In this document: positions 1 through 47,383 of the stretch, piece by piece | How the letters are laid out: every line of letters begins with the position of its first letter | Position numbering within the stretch: the stretch's first letter is position 1 | Virus record (IMG/VR): IMGVR_UViG_3300050821_004815 | Coordinates: 1 to 50,228 of that record | DNA from: a virus | Strand: one strand, 5' to 3' | DNA: 50,228 nt | Made by a program: the position numbers and the translations under genes | Notes under the pieces: generated by a model | Seen by the model: only the letters and a program-made list of their open reading frames with translations | Databases searched by the model: none | What the model was told of the DNA's origin: nothing

Positions 1-1
1 C

Positions 2-61
2 CGCTATAAAAGCTCCGATCAGACGAAACGACCGGCCTCCGAGCTTCCGGAGGCAGAATGA
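2..61 (+). CDS. 3' end of a small gene cut by the window start
   Basis: Nineteen codons and a TGA, starting RYKSSDQTK and ending ELPEAE, are identical in protein to the C-terminus of the gene at 46181-46642. Read across the window ends, the frame continues from an ATG at 50197, giving a 30-codon ORF that begins MNTSAKYREAY. In this copy the gene would therefore be a short derivative carrying only the shared C-terminus. The start codon of the next gene overlaps its stop (ATGA). Function unknown. Confidence 0.55.
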   Translation, partial: RYKSSDQTKRPASELPEAE

Positions 62-186
62 CCCTCAACCAGATCCTCGCCCAATTGGTGCGCGCCGCTG
101 AATGGCAGCTTGCTAGGCGCTCGCCGACCTGGGTGCTGCTCGGAATTGTCATGGGCGCCATCGCGCTCGCCCTGCTAAAGCACTGA
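58..186 (+). CDS. Small single-pass membrane protein (42 aa)
   Basis: Starts MTLNQILAQLVRAAEWQ and has one hydrophobic segment at about residues 25-40 (TWVLLGIVMG then AIALALL), ending in LKH. The ATG overlaps the preceding TGA, implying translational coupling. A near-identical copy lies at 46639-46767. The differences cluster at residues 19-21 and 34, so the protein is conserved as coding. It probably sits in the inner membrane; its role is unknown. Confidence 0.7.
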   Translation: MTLNQILAQLVRAAEWQLARRSPTWVLLGIVMGAIALALLKH

Positions 187-197
187 GGGACACAAAC

Positions 198-563
198 TTG
201 GACGAACCGATGAGTATCGAGTTGGATAAAGCCCTAATGGCCCGTTCCCGGCGCAAGGTTAGGGCGTTGACCTTTGCCGACCGGGTGGCGATCAATCTGC
301 TCTACGACAATCGGAAGGGCGTCAGCGGCCCCGTCTTGGCCCGCGTATTCGGGGTGTCGAAGAACACCATCTATTACAAATCGCTGACGGGTAAGGCTGA
401 CTCCTATCCGACCACTGGCGAGCAGGTGAACGAGGTCGAGGAGGAAATCGACCGGCTCGGGCGCGACGAGGCCAGGGCGATCTACCTGACCGACGAGATC
501 CTCACCCGGGTCAACGCCGAGCTGCAGCGCACCGCGCGACGCAAGGAACGGAGACGGCGTTAA
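198..563 (+). CDS. Helix-turn-helix DNA-binding protein, copy 1
   Basis: A 121-aa basic protein. The stretch DRVAINLLYDN, then GPVLARVFGVSKNTIYYKS (about residues 30-65), looks like a helix-turn-helix of the Trp-repressor/homeodomain-like kind. It is followed by an acidic helix (EVEEEIDRLGRDEARAIYL) and a C-terminal Arg/Lys run. TTG at 198 is chosen because GAGGGA lies 7 bases upstream; the in-frame ATG at 210 would be 19 bases from it. The paralogue at 46779-47144 is about 95% identical. The protein at 43712 shares the same layout (HTH, then LG-x-E/D helix, then Y-x-T). Probably a phage regulator; the target is unknown. Confidence 0.7.
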   Translation: MDEPMSIELDKALMARSRRKVRALTFADRVAINLLYDNRKGVSGPVLARVFGVSKNTIYYKSLTGKADSYPTTGEQVNEVEEEIDRLGRDEARAIYLTDEILTRVNAELQRTARRKERRRR

Positions 564-657
564 TTCAAGGCAGGGCGAGGCCAAGCAGGGCTATGCGCGG
601 TCGGGCCATGCGCGACGAAGCAGGGCGGGGCTCAGCGAAGCGGGGCAACGCAAGGAT
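564..657 (+). repeat. Pentanucleotide array A1
   Basis: About 17 units of period 5 with GC at fixed phase (RGCNN) fill the gap between the stop at 563 and the TTG at 658. The array ends CGCAA GGATT, with GGATT in phase. In the second module copy the same two genes overlap by four bases (TTGA at 47141-47144) with no array, so this 94-bp block is an insertion or expansion exactly at the junction. Its AGGA end may serve as ribosome-binding site for the next gene. Confidence 0.9.
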
Positions 658-900
658 TTGACACCAGAACAATTACAAAAACGGAACGAAAAAATTAAAG
701 CGGCATGGGATTGCCCTTTGCGGCGATCATTGATGGCGAGGCTTAAAAAGGATCAGGTTTATGCCCGTTATGCCTGTCGGGGCCCGGATGGCCGATATCG
801 AAGATCTGACCCGCATGGTGGTCTCGGTTCAGGCGGAAGCGGCCAGCCACGGCAAACTGACGCTGTGGACGATCTACGACAAGCCGAAGGACCACCCTGA
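658..900 (+). CDS. Small basic protein overlapping the next gene, copy 1
   Basis: 80 aa. The N-terminal 50 residues (IKAAWDCPLRRSLMARLKK, then GPDGRYRRSDP) are conserved in the copy at 47141-47383 although the DNA there is only loosely similar. That argues the reading frame is real. The C-terminal third overlaps the next gene in another frame and is Gly/Pro/Gln rich. The start is TTG, with AAGGA from the array end six bases before. The first 120 bases are clearly AT-richer than the module around them. Function unknown; the basic N-terminus suggests nucleic-acid contact. Confidence 0.55.
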   Translation: MTPEQLQKRNEKIKAAWDCPLRRSLMARLKKDQVYARYACRGPDGRYRRSDPHGGLGSGGSGQPRQTDAVDDLRQAEGPP

Positions 901-1060
901 CGAGATCGTCGCCCGCCGACATGAGGTTCCCGGCGGCCCGACCGAAAACTTGATGGGCGGCGATCTCGGGCTTCTGCGTGAGGTGTTCCGCGGCGCCGGC
1001 CTGGTGTGCGTCGGCCGGCGGGAGGGCGACGACGTCAAGATAGTCGAGACATGGCTTTAA
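761..1060 (+). CDS. Conserved hypothetical protein, copy 1
   Basis: 99 aa and nearly identical to 47244-47543. Core segments are ADIEDLTRMVVSVQAEA, GKLTLWTIYDKPKDHPDE and GGDLGLLREVFRGAGLVCVG, which read as a small alpha/beta domain. The ATG at 761 has AAGGAT about 8 bases upstream; a later in-frame ATG (MADIEDL, 788) is possible. It overlaps the preceding gene by 140 bases in a different frame in both copies. No motif identifies a function. Confidence 0.75.
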   Translation: MPVMPVGARMADIEDLTRMVVSVQAEAASHGKLTLWTIYDKPKDHPDEIVARRHEVPGGPTENLMGGDLGLLREVFRGAGLVCVGRREGDDVKIVETWL

Positions 1061-1073
1061 CGGAGGATCAAAG

Positions 1074-1340
1074 ATGAACGCGATTGTCGAACTGGTTCAG
1101 CCGATCAAAAAGATTCGCAAGCCGCTCGAAGTCAAAAACGCCGAGCTAAGAGCCGAAATCCGCGAGCTTAAGCGCGACCTGAAGGCGGCGCGTCGGCACG
1201 CGACGGACATGCTCGCCTCGATGAAGCTGATGAACCATCGGATGCGATGGCTGATGGAGCATGCGAACTTCGAAACACGCTGCACATGCACCCCGACGCG
1301 CGCCGACTATCTCAGGGCGATTGCGCGTGACCCCGCGTGA
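1074..1340 (+). CDS. Coiled-coil protein with CxC tail, copy 1
   Basis: 88 aa. Residues 20-55 are rich in E/K/R/L heptads (KNAELRAEIRELKRDLKAAR), predicting a coiled coil. The C-terminus carries TRCTCTPTRAD followed by a basic tail. GGAGG lies upstream of the ATG. The copy at 47954-48196 keeps both ends, but the middle (MKLMNHRMRWLMEHANF here) is different. Its 3' end overlaps the GTG of the next gene. Role unknown; probably a small dimeric protein. Confidence 0.75.
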   Translation: MNAIVELVQPIKKIRKPLEVKNAELRAEIRELKRDLKAARRHATDMLASMKLMNHRMRWLMEHANFETRCTCTPTRADYLRAIARDPA

Positions 1341-1845
1341 AGCCGGCGAGATCGAGCTCGAAGAGCCCGACTGGTCAGCCCGGTTTGCGGAGCACTGCCT
1401 CCGCTGGCCGCGCTTGCCGCGGTACTTGCAGGAGGACTCGGCGTTCGAAGCCGTCATGCGCGAGTGGAGGATTTTCCATTTCGTCTGGAAAGAGAGCGAG
1501 GGGAAGGCCAAACGTCAGCCAGCGTCGGCGCCGGAAGCTATCATCGGACTCGCTAAGATCGGGATTTTCCCTGCTCGCTTTCTGCACAAAGATGTTCCTC
1601 GCGATCCAAGCGGCGGCTTTCAAAGTGACGATCATTGTTGGTTGAGCCTGAATCAAGAGCAATGGCGCATTACTGGCGTCGAGGACAAAATACTGTGTCT
1701 AGAAAAGGGGTTCGAAGACAAGCCGGAAACGCGACAAATTAACCTCGCTACGGCGAAATGGACGAAATACTGTGAAGCGGCGAGTGAGGCTTTGCGCGCT
1801 CGATCAGAATTTGAGGTTTACAACTCTACTAAAAATCAGCTATAG
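1327..1845 (+). CDS. Conserved hypothetical protein, copy 1
   Basis: 172 aa from GTG 1327, overlapping the previous stop as in a coupled operon. It matches 48509-48985 along its length (VTPREAGEIELEEPDW, FEAVMREWR, FPARFLHKDVPR, EDKILCLEKGFEDKPET). In copy 2 a CxxCxxCC gene lies just upstream, but not here. The last ~15 residues extend past the paralogue and the sequence there becomes AT-rich, next to array A2. No catalytic motif is recognised. Confidence 0.7.
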   Translation: MTPREAGEIELEEPDWSARFAEHCLRWPRLPRYLQEDSAFEAVMREWRIFHFVWKESEGKAKRQPASAPEAIIGLAKIGIFPARFLHKDVPRDPSGGFQSDDHCWLSLNQEQWRITGVEDKILCLEKGFEDKPETRQINLATAKWTKYCEAASEALRARSEFEVYNSTKNQL

Positions 1846-1857
1846 AGCTATTCTCTG

Positions 1858-2072
1858 CACGGCCAAGCGTAGCAAGGCTGGGCAAGGCGTGGCTGGGCCG
1901 GGCGGCGCGAGGCTAGGCGTGGCGTGGCGAAGCTAGGCGTGGCGTGGTCTGGCAATGCCCAGCCGGGCCGGGCGGCGCGAGGCAGCGCTCAGCATGGCAT
2001 GGCGCGGCGGGGCCAAGCAAGGCTTGGCGTCGCGAGGCGTGGTCGGGCGGCGCAGAGCGCAGCGAGGCAAGG
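1858..2072 (+). repeat. Pentanucleotide array A2
   Basis: About 43 units of the 5-bp RGCNN repeat with few phase slips, on the top strand. It contains a longer duplicated block (GGGCCGGGCGGCGCGAGGC recurs about 70 bp apart), which points to slippage or unequal exchange. It ends GGCAA GGATT and then TAATGAGTCAATTTA. The same junction, GGATTTAAT followed by GAGTCAATT, recurs after array A6 at 13559-13581. No gene is believable inside. Confidence 0.9.
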
Positions 2073-2077
2073 ATTTA

Positions 2078-2116
2078 ATGAGTCAATTTAACTCTGCTCG
2101 GCGAAGCAAAGCTTAG
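2078..2116 (+). pseudogene. Vestigial 12-codon ORF (MSQFNSARRSKA)
   Basis: ATG follows AAGGATTTA from array A2, so it has a ribosome-binding site, but it stops after 12 codons where array A3 begins. Its start (MSQFN) and 5' flank resemble the start of the helicase gene at 13571 (MSQLD, same GGATTTAAT...GAGTCAATT). It could be the remnant of a gene whose body was replaced by repeat. It could also simply be copied array flank. Confidence 0.35.
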
Positions 2117-2160
2117 CATGGCGTGGCACGGCCGAACACGGCGTTGCTAGGCAAGGCATG
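2098..2160 (+). repeat. Pentanucleotide array A3
   Basis: About 12 units of the same 5-bp repeat, ending GGCAA GGCAT GGATT directly before the ATG of the ribbon-helix-helix gene (2166). It is separated from A2 by only ~25 bp of AT-rich sequence. Confidence 0.85.
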
Positions 2161-2165
2161 GATTT

Positions 2166-2333
2166 ATGACAACCAAAACTTCACGAATCACCATTAATTT
2201 TAGCGACGCGGCGACGCAGTGGCTCAACCAAGAAGCTACGCGCCGCAATTTGAGCATCAGCGAATTGATCCGCCGCATCGTGGACGAACTGCGCGGTGAT
2301 TTTGTGCTCAAGGACAGCAAGAAAGCGTCTTGA
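2166..2333 (+). CDS. Ribbon-helix-helix (CopG/Arc-like) DNA-binding protein
   Basis: 55 aa: a beta strand (TSRITINFS), helix 1 (AATQWLNQEATRR), then NLSISELIRRIVDELR, the classic RHH layout of strand, helix, turn, helix. Such proteins dimerise and bind operator DNA through the strand. The ATG lies directly after the array end (ATGGATTTATG), so ribosome binding is weak or array-derived. It is AT-rich against its surroundings, suggesting acquisition. It likely regulates nearby early genes or itself; no target is visible. Confidence 0.75.
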   Translation: MTTKTSRITINFSDAATQWLNQEATRRNLSISELIRRIVDELRGDFVLKDSKKAS

Positions 2334-2363
2334 CGTCACTATAGATCGGATTTATGTAGATCA

Positions 2364-2436
2364 AGCACGGCGTGGCCGGGCGTAGCTCGGCACGGTTTGG
2401 CTAGGCGGTGCTGGGCGTGGCTCAGCGAGGCATGGG
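2364..2436 (+). repeat. Pentanucleotide array A4
   Basis: About 14 units (GGCGT GGCCG GGCGT AGCTC GGCAC and so on) between the RHH gene and the gene at 2457. It ends GGCAT GGGTC rather than GGATT. The downstream gene has its own site, GAAGGAAAG, so this array does not supply the ribosome-binding site. Confidence 0.85.
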
Positions 2437-2456
2437 TCTACAGAAGGAAAGATAAA

Positions 2457-3053
2457 GTGGAGATCAAAATAGCTGTTACTGGAATTACGCCACTAATCAT
2501 GAATAAATTTTCTGATGAAGCCGCATTAATCGCTTCTGGCGGCGTCCGAGGTAGTTCAGCTGCGGCTGGACGCAAAACGCCGCTCGAAATTTGTGAAAGT
2601 AAATTGTATGTAGGCCTCGACGGTAAAATAATGGTTCCACAGCCTAATTTATTACGCAGTATTGTAGACGGCGGTCGATTTCATAAGGCAGGAAAAAAAC
2701 AAATCACGACTAAAGAAGAGTCAATGATGTTTTCCTGCCTTGATATCGAAGGCATTAGTATTCCAGTCATCCATCAACAAGGCTGGAAGGTCGACACCCG
2801 TCCTGTGGTCAACCCTTCGACAAAAGGGCGTATCCTTTGTCATCGCCCGATGTTTGATGATTGGAGATTGGAATTCATCGTTCACCTCGACATCACTCTT
2901 CTCGGTCCAGGCATCTTCAGACAAATTGTCGATGACGCTGGCAATCGTATCGGGCTCGGTGATTTTCGACCGGCGCGAAAAGGTCCATACGGTCGTTATC
3001 GCGTCGACCATTGGGAGATCGTTGAGCAAACGCTTGATATAGCGGCGGAATAA
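2457..3053 (+). CDS. Phage 'TPLIMN' family protein (possible nucleic-acid-binding RAMP-like fold)
   Basis: 198 aa from GTG 2457, chosen for GAAGGAAAG 7 bases upstream; a longer frame would run into array A4. The N-terminus KIAVTGITPLIMNKF and the C-terminal GLGDFRPARKGPYGRY are marks of a widespread phage protein family that usually sits beside replication or recombination genes. From memory its fold has been likened to Cas7/RAMP ferredoxin-like proteins, but I cannot verify that here. The gene is AT-richer than the genome core and is flanked by arrays A4 and A5, so it looks acquired. Confidence 0.6.
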   Translation: MEIKIAVTGITPLIMNKFSDEAALIASGGVRGSSAAAGRKTPLEICESKLYVGLDGKIMVPQPNLLRSIVDGGRFHKAGKKQITTKEESMMFSCLDIEGISIPVIHQQGWKVDTRPVVNPSTKGRILCHRPMFDDWRLEFIVHLDITLLGPGIFRQIVDDAGNRIGLGDFRPARKGPYGRYRVDHWEIVEQTLDIAAE

Positions 3054-3060
3054 TTCAACT

Positions 3061-3368
3061 TAGCTGGGCAAAGCCTGGCGAAGCACGGCGACGCGAGGCC
3101 CGGCGGCGCGTGGCGGGGCAAGGTACGGCCCGGCATGGCGGCGCGAAGCCTCGGCGTGGCTCTGCCTGGCTCGGCAACGCATCGCGCGGCCGGGCAAGGC
3201 TTGGCGTGGCATAGCATGAGATGGCGAAGCACGGCGTGGCAACGCGCGGCATGGCGCAGCAAGGCGAGGGCGGGGCAGGGCGCGGCAGAGCGGAACTTGG
3301 CGATGCTGTGCCTGGCTTTGCTAGGCGTGGCCAGGCGTGGCCAGGCACGGCTGGGCAAGGCAAGGATT
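3061..3368 (+). repeat. Pentanucleotide array A5 (longest)
   Basis: About 60 units over ~305 bp with the GC dinucleotide every 5 bases and only a few phase slips. It includes GGCGTGGCCA repeated in tandem near 3325-3345. It ends GGCTG GGCAA GGCAA GGATT in phase. ORFs through it translate to low-complexity Ala/Pro/Arg or Gly/Ala/Arg 5-residue repeats and are not genes. A hairpin follows at 3378-3410. Confidence 0.92.
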
Positions 3369-3377
3369 TATATTAAA

Positions 3378-3424
3378 GGGCCCCCTGCAACGCCAAGCAG
3401 CAGGAGGCCCAATGGTCTGTTTTA
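3378..3424 (+). terminator. Hairpin after array A5, possible terminator
   Basis: Arms 3378-3388 and 3400-3410 pair at 10 of 11 positions (GGGCCCCCTGC with GCAGGAGGCCC) around an 11-base loop. A weak T-rich stretch (TGTTTTA) follows. It would end transcription from the 2166-3053 genes before the helicase gene. The remaining ~100 bases to 3528 contain a TTGACA at 3488 without a good -10. Confidence 0.5.
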
Positions 3425-3527
3425 GCCCAGGTGCGTAGGCCAACATTACATGTAGTGGAGTTATCCAACGTTGTCCACATGAGCGGTTTGACAGGACGCT
3501 GAATCGGGCAGAAATCTCGACCCACAG

Positions 3528-6041
3528 GTGCGCCAAATGCCGTGGGAATCAACCCGAATACAGCGATATTTAACCGTCGATTTCATCACCAAGAGGAGAT
3601 TAAATGCCCCGGCAGTCTGGCTAGGCCCGCAAAGCAGAGCGCCAAGCGCCGACGACGCGATCCGGCCGCCAGACGGGCTCAAGACCGACCCTAACGAATG
3701 GGCGAACGAGGATGACGAGCGCAATCTCGCCGTCCGCCTGGTCAACGGGCATATCGAGCTGCAGATCCAAGCGCCCGACGAAATCTGGCTCGGATTCTTA
3801 TTTAAGGCTTTCCGAGAGCTTCGAATCGACGCCCGCGCCGCCTTCGGAAGTCAATTCATCACCTCCATCATCCTGAGAATTGACGATCCTGAGACCATCG
3901 ACCGCTGGCGCGAGCTCTGGCCGCGCGGCCACACCGACAAGAACGGCCGCTGGGTCGAGACCAAATTCGCCTATTCGTCCATGCCGACCGCACGCTCGAA
4001 GGCGATCTGGCACGATTCGAAGCCCCTTCCCGGCTCGATCTTCGCCGAGAAGCTCGTCGTCTGGCGCCCGTGGGGCAAGCCGGCGGCCGAGACGGCCGAG
4101 ACCGGGCTGGACGATCTCGAAGTTAGAGAACTCGCCGCGACAAATATGAAATCTATTTGTCGCGCCATCGCTTTCGCCACTTTAGCCTATTGGATCAACG
4201 ACTATCTCGACGGGCTTGAAGAATGGGACGAGAGCCTAACGCGGGTGATGGGCGGCTGGGTCGCTCGACTGATCCGCGAAGGCCAGGACATCAACGCGCG
4301 CGGCAAGAGCCTCGAAGGGGTGTGCTGGTCGCCTATCGAGGATTCCCCGACCGCCGGTGAGCTGCTCAACTTTCTTGGCGCGATGGGCGCAAGCAAGGAT
4401 CTTGGCGTCGCCTTCCTGCACGCCGAAGCGGCGTTAGAGCGCAGCTCGACCGCGCCCGTCCCGGGTTGGGGCGCTATCGAGACGCTATTCGGCCCACAGG
4501 CCAAGGTCGGCATCCGGCGAGCCTTCCGCGCCGGTCTCGACATCGATGCGGTCGAGCGGATGAGCGAGCTCTACATTTACGACCGGACGATGGATAACTT
4601 TCTCGATTGCGATGAGCTGCTCAAAGGGCTGCATCACGAACACAAGGTTGACGAGCTGGAGCGGCGGCACAAAAACGAGATCATCTTCGTCGCCGGCAAG
4701 CCGCAGAACCCGTTTAAGCTCTACGCCGGCTCCTCGCTGCGCACCGATGTCCAGCACCGGGAGTTTCGCCCTGGCTACGAGCCTGGGTCCATCCTGCGCT
4801 ACTCCCCGGTCTACGGGCTGCTAAACGGCGAGGATAAGCATCCGGACGAATACCGGGTTTTGAATGTTTTTCCCGGCTTCGTGATCAAGCCGGTCGCCAC
4901 TATCGATGCGGCGATCATGGGTCGAGCGGTGACCATGCTCGACCGAATGCTCGGTCTCCTGACCCAGGACAAGGACGAGCAGATCAAGTGGCTTAAGCAG
5001 TTCGTCGCCTTTATCGCCCAGCGCCCCGAGATCAAGCCGCAAGTCTGCCCGATCATCGTCGGCGGGCAGGGGATCGGCAAAAGTCTGTTCGGTGACAATT
5101 TGATGAAGGCCTTGTTCGGGATCATGGCCGGCGGCGCCGCGGCCGACGCGCTAACCGAAAACAAGTTCGTCATCACTCCGTTTTTGAGCAAATTGATCAC
5201 CTTCATCGACGAGGTGCGGCTCGAATCGGTCGGGGCGATCAACACCATCAAGAAACTGGTGCGCGCCGACTACGTCTCGGGCCAGGTCAAGTTCGGGCAT
5301 CAGAGAGACTACTATGTCCCGACTCGGCTCCTGATCGCCTCCAACTCGCCCGACATCGGGCTTTCGCCGGTCGACGCCGCCGACCGGGCGTTTTTCTTCA
5401 TCATGTCGTGGACCGGCGAAAACAAGCGGATGACCGACCGCGAATTCCTCGATTGGTCAAACAGTCTCAAGCCGTTCTACACCGAATTCGTCCAGGCGTT
5501 GGAGGCGGTTGTATTCAAGCAGCACCTCATGCGCTATTTCATGGACTTCGAGGTCACCCGCGGCGAACTCGAAAACCTGCAATATTCCTCGCGCAACGAC
5601 GAGAACATCGTACGCTCGACCATGTCGAAGGCGCGCGAGGTGGCGCGAGCTATCGTCGCCGACGCACGGGTGCTCAACGACAAGGATCTGATGGCATGGT
5701 TCAATTCGACCAATCTGCGCGACGCCATCTTTCGCGTCGACGGCCGGCGCAGCAAGGTCGAGGCGGGCCAGGTGATGATGGAATTCGAGCGCGCCGGGGT
5801 GATCGAAGTGGTGCGCGGCGACATCCGCAAGTTTACCTGGGGTTACGGCAAGACGGTGCAGTTGATGAGCGAGGCGCACAGTTTGCCAATCACGCCGAAC
5901 TGGGACTATAAACCAGGCGACTTTGATGCGAACGACATCCGGTCGACCGAAGGGGCGCCACAGTGGCGGGGCTACAACAAAAACCAACGGCAAGACCGCG
6001 GACCCTACGATCCCGATGCTATGGGCCCGGACTCTTACTGA
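3528..6041 (+). CDS. Replicative helicase, P4/DUF5906-like SF3 type
   Basis: Up to 837 aa. The C-terminal half has a Walker A GGQGIGKS (about residues 512-519), a Walker B-like ITFIDEVR (~565), and LLIASNSPDIGLSPVDAADR as sensor 1 with an arginine-finger region. These are typical of phage/plasmid primase-helicases (D5/VirE/DUF5906). The N-terminal ~300 residues show no clear primase motif. It probably unwinds phage DNA at replication. The start is uncertain: GTG 3528 and ATG 3537 lack a good site, while a strong AGAGGAG precedes ATG 3604, which opens only a 6-codon ORF in another frame. A small upstream ORF or a sequence error is possible. Confidence 0.85.
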   Translation: MRQMPWESTRIQRYLTVDFITKRRLNAPAVWLGPQSRAPSADDAIRPPDGLKTDPNEWANEDDERNLAVRLVNGHIELQIQAPDEIWLGFLFKAFRELRIDARAAFGSQFITSIILRIDDPETIDRWRELWPRGHTDKNGRWVETKFAYSSMPTARSKAIWHDSKPLPGSIFAEKLVVWRPWGKPAAETAETGLDDLEVRELAATNMKSICRAIAFATLAYWINDYLDGLEEWDESLTRVMGGWVARLIREGQDINARGKSLEGVCWSPIEDSPTAGELLNFLGAMGASKDLGVAFLHAEAALERSSTAPVPGWGAIETLFGPQAKVGIRRAFRAGLDIDAVERMSELYIYDRTMDNFLDCDELLKGLHHEHKVDELERRHKNEIIFVAGKPQNPFKLYAGSSLRTDVQHREFRPGYEPGSILRYSPVYGLLNGEDKHPDEYRVLNVFPGFVIKPVATIDAAIMGRAVTMLDRMLGLLTQDKDEQIKWLKQFVAFIAQRPEIKPQVCPIIVGGQGIGKSLFGDNLMKALFGIMAGGAAADALTENKFVITPFLSKLITFIDEVRLESVGAINTIKKLVRADYVSGQVKFGHQRDYYVPTRLLIASNSPDIGLSPVDAADRAFFFIMSWTGENKRMTDREFLDWSNSLKPFYTEFVQALEAVVFKQHLMRYFMDFEVTRGELENLQYSSRNDENIVRSTMSKAREVARAIVADARVLNDKDLMAWFNSTNLRDAIFRVDGRRSKVEAGQVMMEFERAGVIEVVRGDIRKFTWGYGKTVQLMSEAHSLPITPNWDYKPGDFDANDIRSTEGAPQWRGYNKNQRQDRGPYDPDAMGPDSY

Positions 6042-13479: not shown

Positions 13480-13480
13480 G

Positions 13481-13560
13481 CTTGGCGAGGCCCGGCGTGG
13501 CCAAGCATGGCGCGGCGCGGTCTAGCGAGGCTTGGCGCTGCAATGCGCTGCAATGCGAGG
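13481..13560 (+). repeat. Pentanucleotide array A6
   Basis: Sixteen units in perfect 5-base phase, ending TGCAA TGCGA GGATT in phase. The last part has a 10-bp tandem (CTGCAATGCG twice). It is followed by TAATTACGTGAGTCAATTA, sharing the A2 3' junction. It separates two genes that are otherwise closely packed. Confidence 0.92.
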
Positions 13561-13570
13561 ATTTAATTAC

Positions 13571-14974
13571 GTGAGTCAATTAGACCCAGTTCAACTTAGC
13601 GCACTCGACTTCTCTCGCGATAAGCGCGGCGTCGGCTGGTTCATGGAGCAGGGGCTCGGCAAGACCCTGTGCGCGCTGGCTGAGTTCTCCTGGTACGAGA
13701 AGCTGGGCGAAGCCGACCGGATGGTCGTGGTGTGCCCGAACACCTTCAAAAAAGGGTGGTCGGACGAGATCGAAAAGCACGGCTTCTCGTTCGCCGAGCA
13801 CATCTTCCAATCAAGCAAAAAAGAGAAGGCCGGGATCTTCGTCAACGGCGTTCATAACCGTCCACCCGTTTTCATTCTCAATTACGAAGCGCTACGAATG
13901 CCGGCGGTGCTCAAGGCGATGACCACGTGGGCCTCGCGCGGCAAGACCTATTTCGCCATTGACGAGTCGATCCAGATCAAGAGCCATAGGAGTCAACAAA
14001 CCAAAGCGGCCCAGCGCCTCGCCGCGGTGTGCAAATGGGTGCGCTTGCTGAGCGGGCGCCCGCAAACCCAAGGTCCGCACGATTTGTGGGGGCAATTGCG
14101 CGCCATCGGGCTGTTCCCCGACACCAGCTTCCTCGCCTTCAGGAATACCTTCTGTGAAATGGGCGGTTACATGATGAAGGAGGTGGTCGGTGTGCGCCAA
14201 CCCGAAATGCTCGCTAGGATCATGGAACCGGTGGTCTTCCAGGCTAAAAAGAAAGACTGGCTACCGGATCTGCCGCGCAAGGACGCGACCATTCGCGATT
14301 ATGCGATGTCGACCGCGCAACTCGCTCAATACAACCAGATGGAGCAGCAGTTCCTGCTCTATCTAGAACACAACGTCGTCACGGTGGACGTCGCTATAGC
14401 TAAATACGAGAAGCTCGCCCAGATCCAGACGGGCTTCATATACGACGAGGCGGGTGATGTTCATGAGCTCGTAAAGCCTCTCGAAAACCCCCGGCTCAAG
14501 CTCTTGCATCAGCTTCTGGACGAGGAGGTCGAGGGCAAGGTCTGCGTCGTCTACCGTCATCGTCCCATCCTTAACATGCTGGTCAAAGCTTTGGCCGAAT
14601 ACGACCCGGCCTGGATCATGGGGCGGATGAAGCCCGAGGACGTCGAGGAGCAGAAGCGGCGATTTAACGACGACCCAAGCTGCCGGATCATCCTGTTGCA
14701 GGCCGAAGCCTCGAAATACGGGCATACTTTGTTGGCTGGCCCAGCGGAAGAAGACAGGTGCCGCACCATGATCTTCTTCGAGAATTCTTATAGCGCCGAC
14801 ACGCGAGACCAGATCGAGGATCGTATCCACCGCCGCGGCCAGACCGGCGAATACGTCTCGTATATCGACCTCTCGGGCTCGGACCTCGACCGCCGGATCG
14901 TCAAAGCCCTGCAACGAAAGGATGCGCTATATCGTTCTGTCTTTAAAAACCTTAGAGTCGCCGAACCAGCTTGA
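13571..14974 (+). CDS. SNF2-family helicase/ATPase
   Basis: 467 aa from GTG 13571, with AGGA at the array end upstream; the longer frame starting in the array is rejected. Motif I is MEQGLGKT (residues ~25-32), motif II AIDESIQIK (D-E-S in place of DEAH), motif III LLSGRPQTQ. Motif VI is QIEDRIHRRGQTG near the C-terminus. This is a compact phage SWI2/SNF2 protein that translocates on dsDNA, probably in replication or recombination with the VRR-NUC-like nuclease. The first ~12 codons are AT-rich next to the array. Confidence 0.88.
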   Translation: MSQLDPVQLSALDFSRDKRGVGWFMEQGLGKTLCALAEFSWYEKLGEADRMVVVCPNTFKKGWSDEIEKHGFSFAEHIFQSSKKEKAGIFVNGVHNRPPVFILNYEALRMPAVLKAMTTWASRGKTYFAIDESIQIKSHRSQQTKAAQRLAAVCKWVRLLSGRPQTQGPHDLWGQLRAIGLFPDTSFLAFRNTFCEMGGYMMKEVVGVRQPEMLARIMEPVVFQAKKKDWLPDLPRKDATIRDYAMSTAQLAQYNQMEQQFLLYLEHNVVTVDVAIAKYEKLAQIQTGFIYDEAGDVHELVKPLENPRLKLLHQLLDEEVEGKVCVVYRHRPILNMLVKALAEYDPAWIMGRMKPEDVEEQKRRFNDDPSCRIILLQAEASKYGHTLLAGPAEEDRCRTMIFFENSYSADTRDQIEDRIHRRGQTGEYVSYIDLSGSDLDRRIVKALQRKDALYRSVFKNLRVAEPA

Positions 14975-17498: not shown

Positions 17499-18874
17499 TC
17501 AAGCTGACCCGTCTTCGGATTGTAGGTGTAAGTTTTACCGCCTCCAGGGGCGTTCGCGTTCGCGGTCGCCGACTTCGGCGGATTGCTCGCCCACTGGCCA
17601 CCCTTGCCGGCATAGAGATCGCCGCCCGGCAAATAAGCCGAGTTCACCAACGGCTTTGGGTTGTTGGGGTCGCTCGTGTCCCACTTCATGCTATCGGGAA
17701 TTTCATCTATCCGGCCGGCCGCGCCGAGGGTGTTGACGTAGCTCTTGTTCAGTTGATTCTGAAACTGGCCGAACTGACTCATGTAGCCTTCCGGCGACTG
17801 AGTGAAGTTGGTCAGCGGGCTCAAGCCCTCGCGTAAGTTCTTCACCTCGGTCCCGGTGCGCCTCGACCCGGTCGATTGGAACGCCTCGCCGTAGACCTGG
17901 TTGTTGAGGGTTTTCATCTTCATCAGCGCATCTTGCTCGGGCTGGGTCAGGCCAGCCGAAGCAAGCAGCGACATCATGACACCCGGAGCAGTGTGCTCGT
18001 CCGACGACATCAGCTTTATGGCCGCGGCCTTCTTGATCGAGCTGGACAGGATATTCTGCATCACCGGCGTCGTGCCATCGGTGTCGACCGCGTTTTTGAT
18101 CTGGTCCGCGGTGGTCCGCATCTGGTCGATCTGAGTCAGCATGTCGGGCGCTTTTTGCTGTGCTTCGAGCAGATCTTTCTGCTTCTGCTCTGCGCCCTGC
18201 GTCCCGACTTGGATATTCGCCTCACCCTGCTTCTGCTTAAGCGCGATCTGCGCATCGATCTGCTTATTCATCAGCCCCTGCAGCTGGTCGGTCGGCAGGG
18301 CGTTAAGGATATTCGGATCCATCCCGTTCGGACCGCCAGTGAGGGAAGCGATCATCGCCGGCCGCGCGGCGTTGAGCCGCTGCATGTTCTGCAGCGCGAT
18401 CAGATTGGTCAGTTGCGCCCCAGGATCGGCGCCCTGGCGCTGCGAACCCATGATCGCATTCGCCATCTGAGGGGTCGAGAAAGCCGCCGCCATCATGTTG
18501 AGACCGTGGTCGATCTCGTTGGCCGAGCGGTTGCGCTGCTCCATCTGCAGATAAAGCTGGGCGAGGTCGGGCGGCGACTGAGTGGCGGCCGTAGGAGGCA
18601 ATCCCTGCTGTCCGGGCGGGGGCGCCGGCGGCGAAGGCCCGCCAGCGGGCAACGGCGGACCTCCTACAGGCCGCATAACCCCGCCACCCATCGGAGGGCC
18701 GCCTTGAGCGGGAGGAGGCATGGCGCCTGGGGGCAGCTTCCCGCCTGGCGGTGTGTTCTGCAATTGCGGCGGCGCATTCGGGTTGGGATTGGGCGCCGGT
18801 TGTGGGTTCATCGCCCCGGCAAGTTGGCTGTAGGGGTTGCCGTATAAAAGATTCAAGATTTCCGCGCCGATCAT
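17495..18874 (-). CDS. Putative internal virion protein, Pro-rich N-terminus
   Basis: 459 aa with AGGAGGAG before the ATG on the reverse strand. Residues 20-110 are Pro/Gly rich. The rest is helical with Gln-rich coils (LMNKQIDAQIALKQKQGEAN, QKQKDLLEAQQKAPDMLTQI). It sits in the ejection-protein cluster. No enzymatic motif. Array A7 lies just upstream of its start. Confidence 0.6.
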   Translation of the reverse strand: MIGAEILNLLYGNPYSQLAGAMNPQPAPNPNPNAPPQLQNTPPGGKLPPGAMPPPAQGGPPMGGGVMRPVGGPPLPAGGPSPPAPPPGQQGLPPTAATQSPPDLAQLYLQMEQRNRSANEIDHGLNMMAAAFSTPQMANAIMGSQRQGADPGAQLTNLIALQNMQRLNAARPAMIASLTGGPNGMDPNILNALPTDQLQGLMNKQIDAQIALKQKQGEANIQVGTQGAEQKQKDLLEAQQKAPDMLTQIDQMRTTADQIKNAVDTDGTTPVMQNILSSSIKKAAAIKLMSSDEHTAPGVMMSLLASAGLTQPEQDALMKMKTLNNQVYGEAFQSTGSRRTGTEVKNLREGLSPLTNFTQSPEGYMSQFGQFQNQLNKSYVNTLGAAGRIDEIPDSMKWDTSDPNNPKPLVNSAYLPGGDLYAGKGGQWASNPPKSATANANAPGGGKTYTYNPKTGQLE

Positions 18875-18890
18875 GTGCTATACTCCTCCT

Positions 18891-19007
18891 CGCGCGGCAC
18901 GGCTGTGCTTGGCGTCGCGGAGCTTTGCCCGGCTAGGCATGGCAGGGCTTTGCAGAGCAATCCTCGGCTGGGCCCGGCATCGCAAGACATAGCGCGGCAA
19001 GGCAAGG
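18891..19007 (+). repeat. Pentanucleotide array A7
   Basis: About 23 units, somewhat more degenerate, with the G-rich strand on top although both flanking genes read on the minus strand. It ends GGCAA GGCAA GGATG, abutting a hairpin at 19010-19030. Here the GGAT end faces the 3' end of a gene, so it cannot be a ribosome-binding site. Confidence 0.85.
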
Positions 19008-19009
19008 AT

Positions 19010-19030
19010 GGGGGTCACGTTGTGGCCCCC
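19010..19030 (-). terminator. Stop-codon-spanning hairpin at the end of the 19015-19686 gene
   Basis: GGGGGTCAC and GTGGCCCCC pair over 9 bp (one G-U) with a 3-base loop. The minus-strand TGA stop lies in the stem. No T-run. It directly joins array A7. Confidence 0.45.
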
Positions 19031-20579: not shown

Positions 20580-21951
20580 CGAGCGCCCCTAAAATCGGAG
20601 CGCCGGGAGCGCGCAGTTTGCTTTGTAAAATGCCCTTCGAAGGCGGGGTGGCGTCGGCCGACAGGGCTCCTCCGGGCTGGGGGCCTTGTTTGAGGATTCC
20701 GATTGCCTTCGCCACCCCTTGCGAGGATGGGGGAGTAGCCCCCGCGCCCAGCGCATTCAGCATGTCCATATGCACTGCCATGTGCCCCTTCGAGGTCACC
20801 TGGCGCACGGCGTGCGGCGCGATCTTCTTCACGTCCTCGGCCATCGGGCCGACGATCTTCGGGTAGTGCTTCGGGTCGCCCTTGTAGCGGTAGGCGTACA
20901 TGTCGATGCCGGTCGGGTGCTTGCCGATCTTGACGATGTCGGTCTTGAGGCGGCGATCCGAGAGGCCGAGCATCGATGTGAGACCGGCCATCGCGCTGGT
21001 GCCGCCGGCGCCCGAGGAGAACAGCCCGCCGAGCGTCTGCATGCCGCCGAGCGCCGCCGCCATCGGGTTCGACTGGGTCTGGGTGGTCTGCGAGGCCGAG
21101 GTGCCCGAGGTCGCGGTGTCGTACGGCGTCATGCCTAAAGACGATTCCATGATGCCGAGCTGTTGCTGCGGATACTGGAAGGCCTGTTGGAACTTGGCCA
21201 TCTGGGCGTTGACGTCGTTCTGCGCCTGTTGCTGCTCGAAGCCGCCAGCCGAGGTCAACATCCCGTAATTGGCGATGTTGTTTTGCATCTGCTGCGTGCC
21301 GAGCGTGCCGAGACCGGAAGCGGCCTGGTTGACCAGCCCCTCCTGACTAAGTCCCGCCGCTTGGTTAAGCTGTTGGGCCTGTAAATTGCGGCTAATGTCG
21401 CCGGTCGCTGCGGCTTGCGCCTGGCCGAAGTTGGCTTGGTTGAGCTGGCCTGCCATCTGGGCCATGCCTAACGCGCCTTGAGCCTGTGTGACCCCTTGTT
21501 GAATCGCTTGGCGTGAGCCGCCGAACGCGCCCGCCGATGCCGCGGCGTTCTGTTGCTGGTTCTGTGACAACCCCAGGTTTTGTTGCATGATCGGCAAAGT
21601 TGCATTGATCACGCTGGACGTGAATGGGTTCATGTACGGGCTAAGATTAGTATTAGCAATCTGTGCCGGATTAACTTGCTGCGGCGTCTGGCTCAAGTTG
21701 TTAAGGTACCCAGCCTGAGAAGCGTTCTGCGCGTCCTGGCCGACGTTCCCCGAATTCGCCGCTAAATTCCAGGCTTGTTGGCTCTGTGGAGCAACATCCG
21801 CCACCATCTGACCTTGATATTGCTGGAGGGGCTGCGAGGCGACTTGCTGTGCCAAACCATAATTCTGCTGGCCAGCGTTCTGCACCCATTGCGGAATTTC
21901 GTTGGTGCTCTCGGAACTACCTTGTTGAGTTGTTGTACTGCTCCCTCCCAT
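20572..21951 (-). CDS. Gln/Ala-rich virion protein with S74 intramolecular chaperone domain
   Basis: 459 aa. Residues 1-320 are Gln/Asn/Ala/Ser-rich helical sequence with repeated LNQAxxxSQ-like phrases. At about 330, LSDRRLKTDIVKIG begins a peptidase-S74-like domain (DMYAYRYKGDP, VGPMAEDVKKIAP). S74 domains usually end tail fibres and self-cleave after trimer folding. Here ~65 residues follow it, and the gene sits among ejection proteins, so it may assemble a trimeric neck or internal structure. Confidence 0.65.
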   Translation of the reverse strand: MGGSSTTTQQGSSESTNEIPQWVQNAGQQNYGLAQQVASQPLQQYQGQMVADVAPQSQQAWNLAANSGNVGQDAQNASQAGYLNNLSQTPQQVNPAQIANTNLSPYMNPFTSSVINATLPIMQQNLGLSQNQQQNAAASAGAFGGSRQAIQQGVTQAQGALGMAQMAGQLNQANFGQAQAAATGDISRNLQAQQLNQAAGLSQEGLVNQAASGLGTLGTQQMQNNIANYGMLTSAGGFEQQQAQNDVNAQMAKFQQAFQYPQQQLGIMESSLGMTPYDTATSGTSASQTTQTQSNPMAAALGGMQTLGGLFSSGAGGTSAMAGLTSMLGLSDRRLKTDIVKIGKHPTGIDMYAYRYKGDPKHYPKIVGPMAEDVKKIAPHAVRQVTSKGHMAVHMDMLNALGAGATPPSSQGVAKAIGILKQGPQPGGALSADATPPSKGILQSKLRAPGAPILGALGG

Positions 21952-21974
21952 GTGTTAAACTCCTCTTACAGCGC

Positions 21975-22054
21975 GAGGCTCAGCACGGCACGGCACGGCA
22001 CGGCCAAGCCAGGCGGCGCTCGGCTCGGCGAAGCTCGGCGATGCAAGGCATGGC
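21975..22054 (+). repeat. Pentanucleotide array A8
   Basis: About 16 units, including GGCAC four times in a row, top-strand G-rich between two minus-strand genes. It ends GGCAT GGCAA GGG and merges into a hairpin at 22055-22079. Confidence 0.88.
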
Positions 22055-22079
22055 AAGGGAACCATCCTAGAGTTCCTTT
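22055..22079 (-). terminator. Hairpin at the 3' end of the 22067-22426 gene
   Basis: AAGGGAAC and GTTCCTTT pair over 8 bp (one G-U) with a 9-base loop. The minus-strand TAG stop lies in the loop and the outer arm touches array A8. Confidence 0.4.
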
Positions 22080-28766: not shown

Positions 28767-30258
28767 AGATCACCCCTCCGTTATTCCATAGGACCCCAGC
28801 TGTCGGCGGCAGAGTCGTGGGCAAATTGAGCCACCAATTCGGCCCCGGCGGACCTTGCGGACCCGGCGGACCTTGCGGCCCCGGCGGACCCGTGCCAACC
28901 GCCGTTGTGTCATAAATATCGGCGGCCAAGATTTCGCCCGCGCCAGCAGGCCACAAGAGATTAACTCGATTGTTGGGTACATCGACGGTGTAGCCGCCCG
29001 CGCCCGTCCCGTTGTCGGGAACCAGCCTTAAGCCACCCTTGGAGACGATGAGCCCCATGTTGGCGGCCAGAACAATACTGTTGCCGAACATGTCAGCGGC
29101 GGACAGCGAGAACGCCGTCTGACCCGCAGTAGCGATGTAATATAACGACAGGGTTTTTTGCTGGGTGCCGCCGCCGCCAATAATCGTCGTCCAAGAGAGG
29201 ATGCCAGAGCCATTGGTCGTGAGCACCTGACCGGCCGAGCCGCCGTAGATCGCCAAATGAGTCAGATCAGCGAGAGCGAGCAGTCCGTTGACCGCCAGGC
29301 CGCCCTGAATCGTGACTCCGGACCCGTTGAAAACCGTCGCGCCGTCCGCCCGCGCGATGCTCAGCCAGGTGCCGAGAGACACGCCGGTCGTAGAGTAAGC
29401 CTGGAGGCTGAAATTCGCCCCAACGTTGTTCAATCCCTCATTGGTCTGATCGCCCAGATTCATCACCCAGCGCGTGATCCCCGCCGCCTGGGCAAGGATG
29501 GCGCGCGGATTGTTCAGCGGCGCATTGAGCACCAGGCTATTCGGCCCCTGCACGGTCAGAACTTGATTGACCGTCAGCGAGCCCGTGATCGTGCCACCCG
29601 CAATCGGCAAGTAAGGGCCGCCAGTGACCGGCGTCACCCACGACAAATTGCCGTTGCCGTCCGTAGCCGGAACTTGCCCGAGAGAGCCGCCGCCGATGCT
29701 GAGTTGAGCAACCGTCGGAATGGAACAAACCGCATTCCCGGCGAACAAGAGCGCGCCGCCGGTGACCGCGCCGCCCGTCGCCAAATTAGTCTGCCCGGTG
29801 AACGTCCCACCGCTTGCCGGAACGACGAGGTTCCAGGCCCCTAACGCGCGCCCATAAGTCTGATTGTCGGGCGGCTCGGAGATGCCGACTGAATGCGTTT
29901 CAAGATATTCGAGAGTGACCGGCTCCATCGGCTCAACTGGATCGCGCGACAAAAGAACCGGATAGTCGAGCGAGATCGTGGTCGGCGAGATCTGCACCGC
30001 CGTGTCAACGACATTCCCACCGCCATCAAGCTGATTGATCTGGAAGTTCGGCGGGCTCTCGCCGTCGTTGAGCGAAACTTGCCAATAAAGCGAGCTGACC
30101 GTCGCTGGCACACCAGTGATGGTGATGCCGCTGACAATCGCTGGCCCGGCCGGGGCGTTGCAACCCTCGGTGTTATTCCAATCGTTCGACGGCGGCAGCG
30201 GATCGACCACCCATTGCGGGGGTGGTTTCGGCGGCCCTGGAACCCACGCATCGTTCAT
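28756..30258 (-). CDS. Tail fibre with collagen-like segment
   Basis: 500 aa. The N-terminal ~130 residues are beta-rich (VSSLYWQVSLNDGESPP) and likely attach to the tail. The middle has fibre-type phrases (GGTFTGQTNLATGGAVTG, GGTITGSLTVNQVLTVQG). Near the end, GPPGPQ is repeated three times (collagen triple-helix unit), followed by LWNNGGVICVS, a common fibre C-terminus. It forms a trimeric fibre. Array A9 lies just upstream of its start. Confidence 0.78.
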   Translation of the reverse strand: MNDAWVPGPPKPPPQWVVDPLPPSNDWNNTEGCNAPAGPAIVSGITITGVPATVSSLYWQVSLNDGESPPNFQINQLDGGGNVVDTAVQISPTTISLDYPVLLSRDPVEPMEPVTLEYLETHSVGISEPPDNQTYGRALGAWNLVVPASGGTFTGQTNLATGGAVTGGALLFAGNAVCSIPTVAQLSIGGGSLGQVPATDGNGNLSWVTPVTGGPYLPIAGGTITGSLTVNQVLTVQGPNSLVLNAPLNNPRAILAQAAGITRWVMNLGDQTNEGLNNVGANFSLQAYSTTGVSLGTWLSIARADGATVFNGSGVTIQGGLAVNGLLALADLTHLAIYGGSAGQVLTTNGSGILSWTTIIGGGGTQQKTLSLYYIATAGQTAFSLSAADMFGNSIVLAANMGLIVSKGGLRLVPDNGTGAGGYTVDVPNNRVNLLWPAGAGEILAADIYDTTAVGTGPPGPQGPPGPQGPPGPNWWLNLPTTLPPTAGVLWNNGGVICVS

Positions 30259-30278
30259 GGTATAAGCCCCCTACCATG

Positions 30279-30352
30279 GCAAGGCGAGGCCAGGCTGAGC
30301 ATGGCCCAGCGGGGCCCGGCCCGGCGGCGCCAGGCCCGGCAATGCGCGGCAA
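30279..30352 (+). repeat. Pentanucleotide array A9
   Basis: About 15 units (GGCAA GGCGA GGCCA GGCTG AGCAT and so on), G-rich on the top strand between minus-strand genes. It ends GCGCGGCAAAGAGAGGAG, running into a perfect hairpin at 30356-30383. Confidence 0.86.
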
Positions 30353-30355
30353 AGA

Positions 30356-30383
30356 GAGGAGCTTTGGTCAACCAAAGCTCCTC
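30356..30383 (-). terminator. Perfect 13-bp hairpin at the end of the tail adaptor gene
   Basis: GAGGAGCTTTGGT and ACCAAAGCTCCTC pair fully around a 2-base centre. The minus-strand TGA stop (30368-30370) lies at the tip. No T-run follows on the minus strand; instead array A9 begins. Confidence 0.5.
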
Positions 30384-46184: not shown

Positions 46185-46642
46185 GCGACGTCTATCCGCC
46201 TGTCGTTCAGCGCCCTGCACTGCTGAAATTGGCCGAAGCTCTCCTGAGCCGGGACAATGCCTTGCGCCGCGACGAATGCAGTGATTGGCGCATCAATGGT
46301 AAACGCGGACACATTTACGCAATCCCAGGAACGCTTGATCGGCCCCATACGCCTGGATTTCAGATTTACATCGGATGCGAGTCGGTTAGGGAATGGTCGT
46401 ACGCCAAAAAGGCGCTCGCCCCCTTTACCGATCCGACCAATGACGGAGACGAGGAGGGAATGCTGTTTCTCGACCACCTCCCCTCGCCCAATGAAGCAGA
46501 GATTATCCGTCGATATGTTGGGATTGCCAAAAAGCGAGAGGTGAGTCCCGAGGAGCTTGACCGTCTACGTCGAATGGGAACCCGCTATAAAAGCTCCGAT
46601 CAGACGAAACGACCGGCCTCCGAGCTTCCGGAGGCAGAATGA
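46181..46642 (+). CDS. Hypothetical protein (153 aa)
   Basis: From GTG 46181 (GTGA overlap). N-terminal helix LLKLAEALLSRDNALRRDEC, a central alpha/beta part (GHIYAIPGTLDRPHTPGFQI, MLFLDHLPSPNEAEIIRRYV) and a disordered C-terminus RYKSSDQTKRPASELPEAE. The last 19 residues recur at the window start. The duplicated module begins inside this gene at 46582. Confidence 0.62.
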   Translation: MSDVYPPVVQRPALLKLAEALLSRDNALRRDECSDWRINGKRGHIYAIPGTLDRPHTPGFQIYIGCESVREWSYAKKALAPFTDPTNDGDEEGMLFLDHLPSPNEAEIIRRYVGIAKKREVSPEELDRLRRMGTRYKSSDQTKRPASELPEAE

Positions 46643-46778: not shown

Positions 46779-47144
46779 TTGGACGAACCGATGAGTATCG
46801 AGTTGGATAAAGCCCTAATGGCCCGTTCCCGGCGCAAGGTTAGGGCGTTGACCTTTGCCGACCGGGTGGCGATCAATCTGCTCTACGACAATCGGAAGGG
46901 CGTCAGCGGGCCCGTCTTGGCCCGCGTATTCGGGGTGTCGAAGAACACCATTTATTACAAATCGTTAACGGGTAAGGCTGACTCCTATCCGACTACCGGC
47001 GAGCAAGTGAACGAGGTCGAGGGGGAGATCGCCCGACTCGGGCGCGACGAGGCCAAGGCGATCTACCTGACCGACGAGATCCTCACCCGGGTCAACACCG
47101 AGCTGCAGCGCACTGCACGGCGCAAGGAACGGAGGCGGCGTTGA
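46779..47144 (+). CDS. Helix-turn-helix DNA-binding protein, copy 2
   Basis: 121 aa from TTG 46779 with GAGGGA 7 bases upstream. About 95% identical to the 198-563 protein. Changes include GEIARLG for EEIDRLG and a few neutral ones, so both copies appear functional. Its stop overlaps the next start as TTGA, where copy 1 has array A1. Confidence 0.7.
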   Translation: MDEPMSIELDKALMARSRRKVRALTFADRVAINLLYDNRKGVSGPVLARVFGVSKNTIYYKSLTGKADSYPTTGEQVNEVEGEIARLGRDEAKAIYLTDEILTRVNTELQRTARRKERRRR

Positions 47145-47383
47145 CCGAGGAGCAGATCGAGGCGCGCAACCAAGCCATCAAAGCAGCCTGGGACGATCCT
47201 TTGCGCCGCGCGCTGATGTCCAGGCTGAAACGGGAGCAACGCTATGCCAAGCATGCCCAAAGGGGCCCGGATGGCCGATATCGAAGATCTGACCCGCATG
47301 GTGGTCTCGGTCCAGGCGGAAGCGGCCAGCTACGGCAAACTGACGCTGTGGACGATCTACGACAAGCCGAAGGACCACCCTGA
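47141..47383 (+). CDS. Small basic protein overlapping the next gene, copy 2
   Basis: 80 aa from TTG 47141. MTEEQIEARNQAIKAAWDDP, then LRRALMSRLKREQRYAKHAQ, conserved with 658-900 at protein level despite strongly different, GC-rich DNA. The C-terminal part overlaps 47244-47543 in another frame in both copies. Confidence 0.55.
   Translation: MTEEQIEARNQAIKAAWDDPLRRALMSRLKREQRYAKHAQRGPDGRYRRSDPHGGLGPGGSGQLRQTDAVDDLRQAEGPP

What the first reader, a model, noticed from the sequence alone, without database searches (positions are those of the whole stretch)
558..660. Natural with/without pair for an array
In copy 2 the HTH gene and the next gene overlap by TTGA at 47141-47144. In copy 1 the same junction is opened by 94 bp of array with the sequence otherwise collinear. 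The array therefore arrived, or expanded, exactly between two coding frames without breaking either, and it replaced the coupled start by an AAGGATTTG start.
Basis: seen in the sequence. Interest (0 to 1): 0.85.

Follow-up and report, generated by a model that had tools for sequence, protein, structure and literature searches.

The report
Phage guide RNA beside its target
The inserted repeat array looks like a guide RNA of the newly described phage VIPR system; its code points at the same gene in sister phages while it sits beside its own phage's altered copy of that gene, like a weapon packaged with its antidote.

Summary
The array at 566-655 is real and absent from copy 2, but three readings change. 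(1) It is a vrRNA gene of a VIPR system (preprint PMC13142463); the window's Vipr is at 2457-3053 (profile match to PDB 'SUSP1 Vipr', Csm3/Cas7-like predicted fold). (2) Copies 1 and 2 are very probably two strain alleles of one locus in a ~46.6-kb permuted genome. (3) It is not a clean insertion: array plus ~120 bp of coding sequence (564-777) form one divergent block between near-identical flanks. Decoded by the published 1-nt-skip rule, the junction guide's two best window sites are the neighbouring gene's two alleles; over 2 Mb the best is a sister phage's orthologue. Four other solitary arrays abut the start of their own version of a gene whose orthologue they match in sister phages; two guide cores are exact in 18 and 15 contigs, always in that orthologue. 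One sister phage carries the same guide at the same junction: 22/24 guide bases kept, scaffold base drifted. Dispersed guides linked to altered own sites are not described in the preprint's main text. Expression and activity are untested.

The parts
198..563 (+). HTH gene, allele A (copy 1), 121 aa
   Evidence: ORF; HTH_38 E=2e-5, below Pfam cutoff; orthologue in 8 of 8 relatives
566..655 (+). junction vrRNA array (about 17 units NGC+NN); guide AG GA CA AG TA GC CG CA GC GA AG GG TC GA GG AA AA
   Evidence: period-5 model score 52.7; units parsed
564..777 (+). block that differs between alleles A and B: array plus first 40 codons of the 80-aa gene
   Evidence: identity 73/120 against 346/363 and 230/240 in flanks
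658..900 (+). 80-aa gene, allele A; 25 of 40 N-terminal and 39 of 41 remaining positions (stop included) identical to allele B
748..797 (+). own (mismatched) site of the junction guide, 23 of 34; overlaps start of the next gene (761)
   Evidence: second best of all window positions at 1-nt skip
761..1060 (+). 99-aa gene whose start lies under the guide site
1857..2072 (+). vrRNA array(s), VIPR cassette
2096..2161 (+). vrRNA array, VIPR cassette
2166..2333 (+). ribbon-helix-helix protein, candidate vap (accessory) gene
   Evidence: RHH_1 E=0.0022, below Pfam cutoff
2365..2435 (+). vrRNA array, VIPR cassette
2457..3053 (+). vipr gene (198 aa RAMP protein, PHROG phrog_4652)
   Evidence: family profile to PDB 36pp 'SUSP1 Vipr' E=3.8e-40, single sequence 2.5e-5; model pLDDT 89.6, Csm3-like Z 13.4
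3059..3365 (+). vrRNA arrays, VIPR cassette, followed by hairpin
13480..13560 (+). dispersed vrRNA array, 10 bp before the helicase start (13571); matches helicase codons in relatives
13580..13626 (+). own site of that guide (LDPVQLSALDFS), 23/32 against 25-26/32 in relatives
18892..19012 (+). dispersed vrRNA array upstream of the start of - strand gene 17495-18874; same guide in relative G013
18819..18886 (+). own site of that guide at the start of gene 17495-18874
   Evidence: 29/46, 1-nt skip
21973..22058 (+). dispersed vrRNA array upstream of start of - strand gene 20572-21951
21896..21948 (-). own site of that guide, 22/36
30275..30359 (+). dispersed vrRNA array upstream of start of - strand gene 28756-30258
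30212..30258 (-). own site of that guide (MNDAWVPGPP), 20/32 against 23-24/32 in relatives
46779..47144 (+). HTH gene, allele B (copy 2), TTGA overlap with next gene
47141..47383 (+). 80-aa gene, allele B, no array before it
47231..47280 (+). best site of the junction guide in the window, 25 of 34
   Evidence: 0 of 1000 shuffled guides reach 25 anywhere in the window

Best explanation
The 94-bp array is a solitary vrRNA gene of the phage's VIPR system. Shown here: (a) the phage has a vipr gene and nine GGY/NN-type arrays; (b) the junction guide, read by the published 1-nt-skip rule, is directed at the 80-aa gene beside it, over the start of the 99-aa gene that follows; (c) four other dispersed arrays likewise abut the start of their own version of a gene whose orthologues they match in sister phages; (d) the block exchanged between copy 1 and copy 2 holds the guide and part of the guide's site, and the copies fit two alleles of one locus. 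Inferred: Vipr assembles on the vrRNA and binds the rival's gene start in a mixed infection, repressing it (as shown for SUSP1 VIPR in the preprint). The own version carries codon changes under the guide that weaken the match. Guide and escape allele stay tightly linked, so recombination between co-infecting sister phages cannot easily create self-targeting progeny. Allele A is thus a guide-plus-antidote haplotype and allele B a haplotype without it.
For: Vipr. Arrays and vipr co-occur: 83 of 120 contigs fetched by DNA pattern alone hold the family; nearest array on the same strand in 82 of 84 with the window. Junction guide: top two of all window positions are 47231 (25/34) and 748 (23/34); 0 of 1000 shuffled guides reach 25; best over 199 loci, 2.0 Mb, is relative G001's orthologue, 20/24, null maxima 18-19. 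A13480 core matches 22-23/24 in 8 of 8 relatives, own 20; exact 11-unit core in 18 contigs, 18 of 18 at the helicase start, no array within 1 kb. A30275 9-unit core exact in 15 contigs, 15 of 15 in the orthologue, no array within 1 kb. Skips 0 and 2 stay at null level. Orthologous vrRNA in G013: NN 22/24 identical, scaffold base 1 2/12; both carriers read NLLYGN where G001, G003 and G005 read NLMYGN. Adjacency of nine arrays to an own site: Fisher p 2.7e-8. Single locus in 8 of 8 relatives.
Against: No perfect target of the junction guide was found: exact 11-unit pattern 0 hits, relaxed pattern only G001. The own-against-rival gap is small for the junction guide (own 23; copy 2 25, G001 24, G003 23 of 34) and absent for A21973 (own 22, others 21-22 of 36). 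The 12-unit cores were chosen on relatives' hits, which favours relatives. Near-flank test alone for A566: 35 of 1000 shuffles reach it; 36 of 200 random windows do (p 0.179). G007, without an array, also reads NLLYGN. The arrays at 1857-3365 match nothing above null. Adjacency is not a general VIPR rule: over 154 arrays the mean is 15.21 at 1-nt skip against 15.03 (skip 0), 14.76 (skip 2) and 14.69 shuffled. No expression data; no stable 3' hairpin after the junction array (z -0.37).
Confidence: 0.74

Rival explanations
1. The guides regulate the phage's own genes: each vrRNA is a cis-acting timer that binds the start of the gene beside it, with partial pairing sufficient.
For: Own sites are next to the arrays and several score above null; partial matches could give tuned repression.
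Against: Relatives' orthologues match better than the own site for A13480 (8 of 8 relatives) and for A30275 and A18892 (G001, G003, G005, G007 each), by the 12-unit core; two cores are exact in 18 and 15 contigs without a nearby array. A self-regulator should match itself best.
Confidence: 0.15
2. The array is a translation leader or neutral tandem expansion that happened to land at the junction and supplies AAGGA as a ribosome-binding site.
For: AAGGATTTG precedes the TTG start; AAGGA is Shine-Dalgarno-like.
Against: NN dinucleotides carry ordered information that matches the neighbouring gene family and are conserved in an orthologous array while the scaffold drifts; slippage predicts the opposite. 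The same 3' edge occurs where no + strand start directly follows (3365).
Confidence: 0.04
3. Copy 1 and copy 2 are true paralogues in one genome, with the array gained by one of them.
For: Both lie in one assembled contig.
Against: 8 of 8 relatives have a single locus with copy 2's left flank and copy 1's right flank, and their contigs are circular permutations of similar genomes; spacing between copies is 46,581 bp; the contig start equals 46582-46679 for exactly 98 bases then diverges, as expected at an assembly-graph branch.
Confidence: 0.1
4. The match reflects ancestry, not targeting: the guide was copied long ago from the adjacent gene and no longer acts.
For: The source of new guides is unknown; adjacency would follow from local copying.
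Against: The same guide is kept (22/24) in G013, whose array scaffold has drifted (2/12) and whose adjacent protein is 59% identical, so the guide appears to be under selection; most own sites match worse than relatives'.
Confidence: 0.12

Closest known systems
VIPR (Viral Interference Programmable Repeat), preprint PMC13142463
   Same: RAMP-fold Vipr protein, GGY/NN vrRNAs flanking vipr, 1-nt-skip reading with the skip at the codon wobble base, targets in competing phages
   Different: Here guides are also dispersed singly through the genome, each at the own orthologue of its target, mostly with an altered own site, and one is allelic (present/absent). The preprint's main text (read in full) describes vrRNAs in the vipr locus; six terms for dispersion, escape, self-targeting or homing do not occur. 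Its supplement was not read. The first scaffold base is often A, T or C here
Free-standing homing endonucleases of T-even phages (intronless homing, marker exclusion; PMC2988022, passages read)
   Same: A weapon acts on the sister phage's locus, and flanking sequence of the weapon-bearing phage replaces the sister's in progeny
   Different: Guide RNA instead of nuclease; no cleavage or preferential inheritance shown here
Class 1 CRISPR Csm3/Cas7 RAMPs
   Same: Fold (Z 13.4, rmsd 3.7, 167 residues, 12% identity)
   Different: No CRISPR array or multi-subunit cas locus seen beside the gene; noncontiguous guide

Membership tests
VIPR system | Vipr protein of the RAMP lineage | tested here: met
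   Profile E=3.8e-40 to PDB 36pp SUSP1 Vipr; Csm3-like predicted fold
VIPR system | vrRNA with tandem GGY/NN pentamers (9-16 repeats in the preprint) | tested here: met
   Period-5 arrays; junction array about 17 units counting weak end units; first scaffold base looser (NGC) than GGY
VIPR system | arrays flank the vipr gene | tested here: met
   1857-2435 and 3059-3365 flank 2457-3053
VIPR system | 1-nt-skip target code, skip at wobble base | tested here: met
   For A13480, A18892, A30275 and A566 skip 1 exceeds the shuffled null and skips 0 and 2 do not; skip falls on codon position 3 in those four. Cassette arrays gave no target
VIPR system | conserved structured 3' tail | tested here: inconclusive
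   GGATTT edge in 5 of 9 arrays; of five 3' regions folded, hairpin z -5.7 at 30275, -3.1 at 18892, -1.8 at 3059, -0.8 at 21973, -0.4 at the junction array
VIPR system | vap accessory gene | tested here: inconclusive
   RHH protein 2166-2333, E=0.0022 below cutoff
VIPR system | vrRNA expressed and bound by Vipr | not testable with these tools
   No RNA data
Intronless homing element | nuclease that cuts the rival allele | tested here: inconclusive
   No nuclease found among the allele A genes scanned with Pfam; not every gene was scanned
Intronless homing element | preferential inheritance in mixed infection | not testable with these tools
   Needs phage crosses

The most novel reading that the evidence does not exclude
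A guide and an escape allele form one linked, transmissible unit: an RNA-guided counterpart of intronless homing or of a poison-antidote drive. In mixed infection the vrRNA-bearing haplotype disables the sister phage's orthologous gene, so progeny that received the unit by recombination (guide plus altered site, here 564-777) are favoured and the unit spreads through the phage population without a nuclease.
Probability: 0.35. Interest if true: 0.92.

Novelty: new variant of a known kind. Interest (0 to 1): 0.82.

Why it matters
It offers a natural allele pair in which a VIPR guide is present in one strain and absent in another at a single defined junction, with predicted target and escape versions in hand. 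An orthologous guide in a second phage shows NN bases conserved while the scaffold base drifts, support for the noncontiguous code that is independent of the preprint's assays. It makes directly testable how phages that use RNA-guided weapons avoid targeting themselves despite frequent recombination: by physical linkage of guide and resistant site.

Tried and rejected
Clean insertion with target duplication: rejected, the divergent block includes coding sequence. G-quadruplex, coding-repeat and generic DNA-binding-array ideas were considered from inspection only and dropped once the family matched Vipr. Rfam: 0 matches in the window at gathering threshold. Sigma-70 scan of 1-3700: 0 promoters. 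Phage GenBank collection: DNA match to arrays of mycobacteriophages Saal, Gorge and DRBy19 only (6 records), none for copy 2; the gene beside the array in Saal and DRBy19 is also a member of the family (tblastn records). Adjacent own-site rule as a general VIPR feature: not supported, though L127 and L121 show it (0 of 1000 shuffles each). Targets of cassette arrays A1857, A2096, A2365, A3059: none above null. Helicase target pattern in the genome-contig collection: 0. The fold searches did not list 36pp itself; the sequence search did. My first array model favoured G at scaffold position 1 and under-scores AGC arrays; relatives were rescanned with a looser model before being called array-free.

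Full report
What is there. The window is a whole IMG/VR virus record of 50,228 bp, a bacteriophage by its SU10-type portal. The 94 bases 564-657 between the HTH gene (198-563) and the next gene (658-900) hold a period-5 array; copy 2 has a TTGA overlap instead. Nine arrays of the same kind lie in the window, all best read on the + strand, including three in the region of minus-strand genes. In 46 of 46 loci with more than one array, all arrays share a strand.

Two alleles, not two copies. The first 98 bases of the window equal 46582-46679 and then diverge. In all 8 relatives examined the locus is single, with copy 2's left neighbours and copy 1's right neighbours, and the contigs are circular permutations of one another, 39-49 kb long. 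The simplest reading is one 46,581-bp turn of a permuted genome plus a second passage through the locus in another strain. Allele A has a VIPR cassette after the 172-aa gene; allele B has a ParB-like gene there, plus an HNH gene and a CxxCxxCC gene upstream. None of the 8 relatives has the vipr gene. The strain reading is an inference; reads were not available.

What was exchanged. Identity between alleles is 346/363 before the array, 73/120 just after it, and 230/240 after that. The array and the first 40 codons of the 80-aa gene are therefore one divergent block. The donor was not identified: copy 1's coding part of the block is 54-63% identical to the five other versions compared. In G001, G003, G005 and G007 the gene has no array before it.

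What the array is. With no use of protein information, 83 of these 120 hold one protein family, that of window gene 2457-3053 (PHROG phrog_4652, unknown function); the nearest array is on the same strand in 82 of 84 cases with the window included. A profile of the family matches PDB 36pp chain D, 'SUSP1 Vipr protein', at E=3.8e-40; the window protein alone at 2.5e-5. Its predicted model (pLDDT 89.6) is Csm3/Cas7-like, Z 13.4, rmsd 3.7 over 167 residues. The preprint PMC13142463 (main text read in full; supplement not read) describes VIPR: Vipr plus vrRNAs of GGY/NN repeats, whose NN bases pair with target DNA that carries one skipped base between dinucleotides.

What the junction guide says. 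The units read AG GA CA AG TA GC CG CA GC GA AG GG TC GA GG AA AA. With one skipped base, the best window site outside arrays is 47231 (25/34), in the 80-aa gene of allele B; the second is 748 (23/34), the same gene in allele A; the third scores 21. None of 1000 shuffled guides reaches 25. Across 199 loci (2.0 Mb) the best 12-unit site is the orthologue in relative G001, 20/24, against null maxima of 18-19 in three shuffles. The site overlaps the start of the next, 99-aa gene. An exact target was not found.

The other dispersed guides. A13480 lies 10 bp before the helicase and matches the helicase's first codons in 8 of 8 relatives at 22-23/24; its own site scores 20. Its 11-unit core is exact in 18 contigs, all 18 at the helicase start (LDPVQIAALDFA), none with an array within 1 kb. 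The own protein reads LDPVQLSALDFS. A30275's 9-unit core is exact in 15 contigs, 15 of 15 at the start of the orthologue (NDQWIPGPP; own NDAWVPGPP) and none with an array within 1 kb. A18892 scores 21, 21, 21 and 20 in G001, G003, G005 and G007, own 19. A21973 is the weakest: best site the orthologue in G013, 19/24, own 18, with no gap over full length. Skips of 0 or 2 stay at null level for these. By contrast the arrays beside vipr match nothing above null.

An orthologous guide. Relative G013 carries an array at the same junction as A18892. Twelve dinucleotides align: 22 of 24 bases are identical, while the first scaffold base agrees in 2 of 12, and a GC-rich inverted repeat of similar sequence follows both (folded for the window only). 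Both carriers read NLLYGN at the site, where G001, G003 and G005 read NLMYGN; G007, without an array, also reads NLLYGN. Conservation of the guide against scaffold drift is what the noncontiguous code predicts.

Statistics and limits. For the nine window arrays, own-site adjacency combined by Fisher gives 2.7e-8; shuffles reaching the observed value were A566 35/1000, A2096 15/1000, A2365 11/1000, A13480 0/1000, A18892 1/1000, A21973 6/1000, A30275 5/1000, A1857 114/200, A3059 198/200. A second null, random windows of the same genome, gives Fisher 5e-7 but p 0.179 for A566 alone; the case for A566 rests on its genome-wide ranking. Over 154 arrays of the window and other phages the rule is not general, though L127 and L121 show it. 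Cores of 12 units were picked on relatives' best hits, which favours relatives; full-length scores are. Expression, binding and effect are untested.

How it most likely works. As shown for SUSP1 VIPR in the preprint, Vipr on the vrRNA would bind the site in the rival's DNA and repress the gene. Here the guides aim at sister phages, at or near gene starts. Each guide lies beside the phage's own version, which differs under the guide in most cases. Linkage would stop recombination between co-infecting sisters from uniting a guide with a matching site. This resembles free-standing homing endonucleases and marker exclusion in T-even phages (PMC2988022, passages only), but no cutting is shown here. 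A search of the held library for vrRNA with Vipr found only the preprint.

Noticed in passing
47547-47957: HNH-type gene in allele B only, between the 99-aa and 88-aa genes; a possible homing gene at the same locus where allele A has a guide array (HNH_3 E=1.6e-4, below cutoff).
   Followed up: partly
49123-50151 and 1857-3365: The slot between the 172-aa gene and the primase holds a ParB-like gene in allele B and the VIPR cassette in allele A; both absent from 8 relatives, a variable cargo slot.
   Followed up: partly
L210 (G012) 3467-4057: The closest Vipr (78% identical) lies in a 22-kb contig with no other match among the window genes searched, suggesting the cassette moves between unrelated backbones.
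   Followed up: partly
L016 3322-3918 (Mycobacterium phage Saal gp51) and 32 further phage records: Vipr-family proteins annotated as hypothetical in 27 Mycobacterium, 5 Gordonia and 1 cyanophage record (33 in all); an array lies before the gene in Saal.
   Followed up: partly
L019 640-1197; L039 2142-2427: Arrays repeated in tandem, most followed by a near-identical inverted repeat (five arrays in L019, three in L039), a vrRNA-plus-tail architecture.
   Followed up: no
L127 11454-11604; L121 6144-6239: Two other phages in which a guide matches a site next to its own array (21/24 and 19/24; 0 of 1000 shuffles each).
   Followed up: partly
18892, 21973, 30275: TATA-like sequences lie just before the three arrays that are antisense to the late genes, where each would need its own promoter; seen by eye only.
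   Followed up: no
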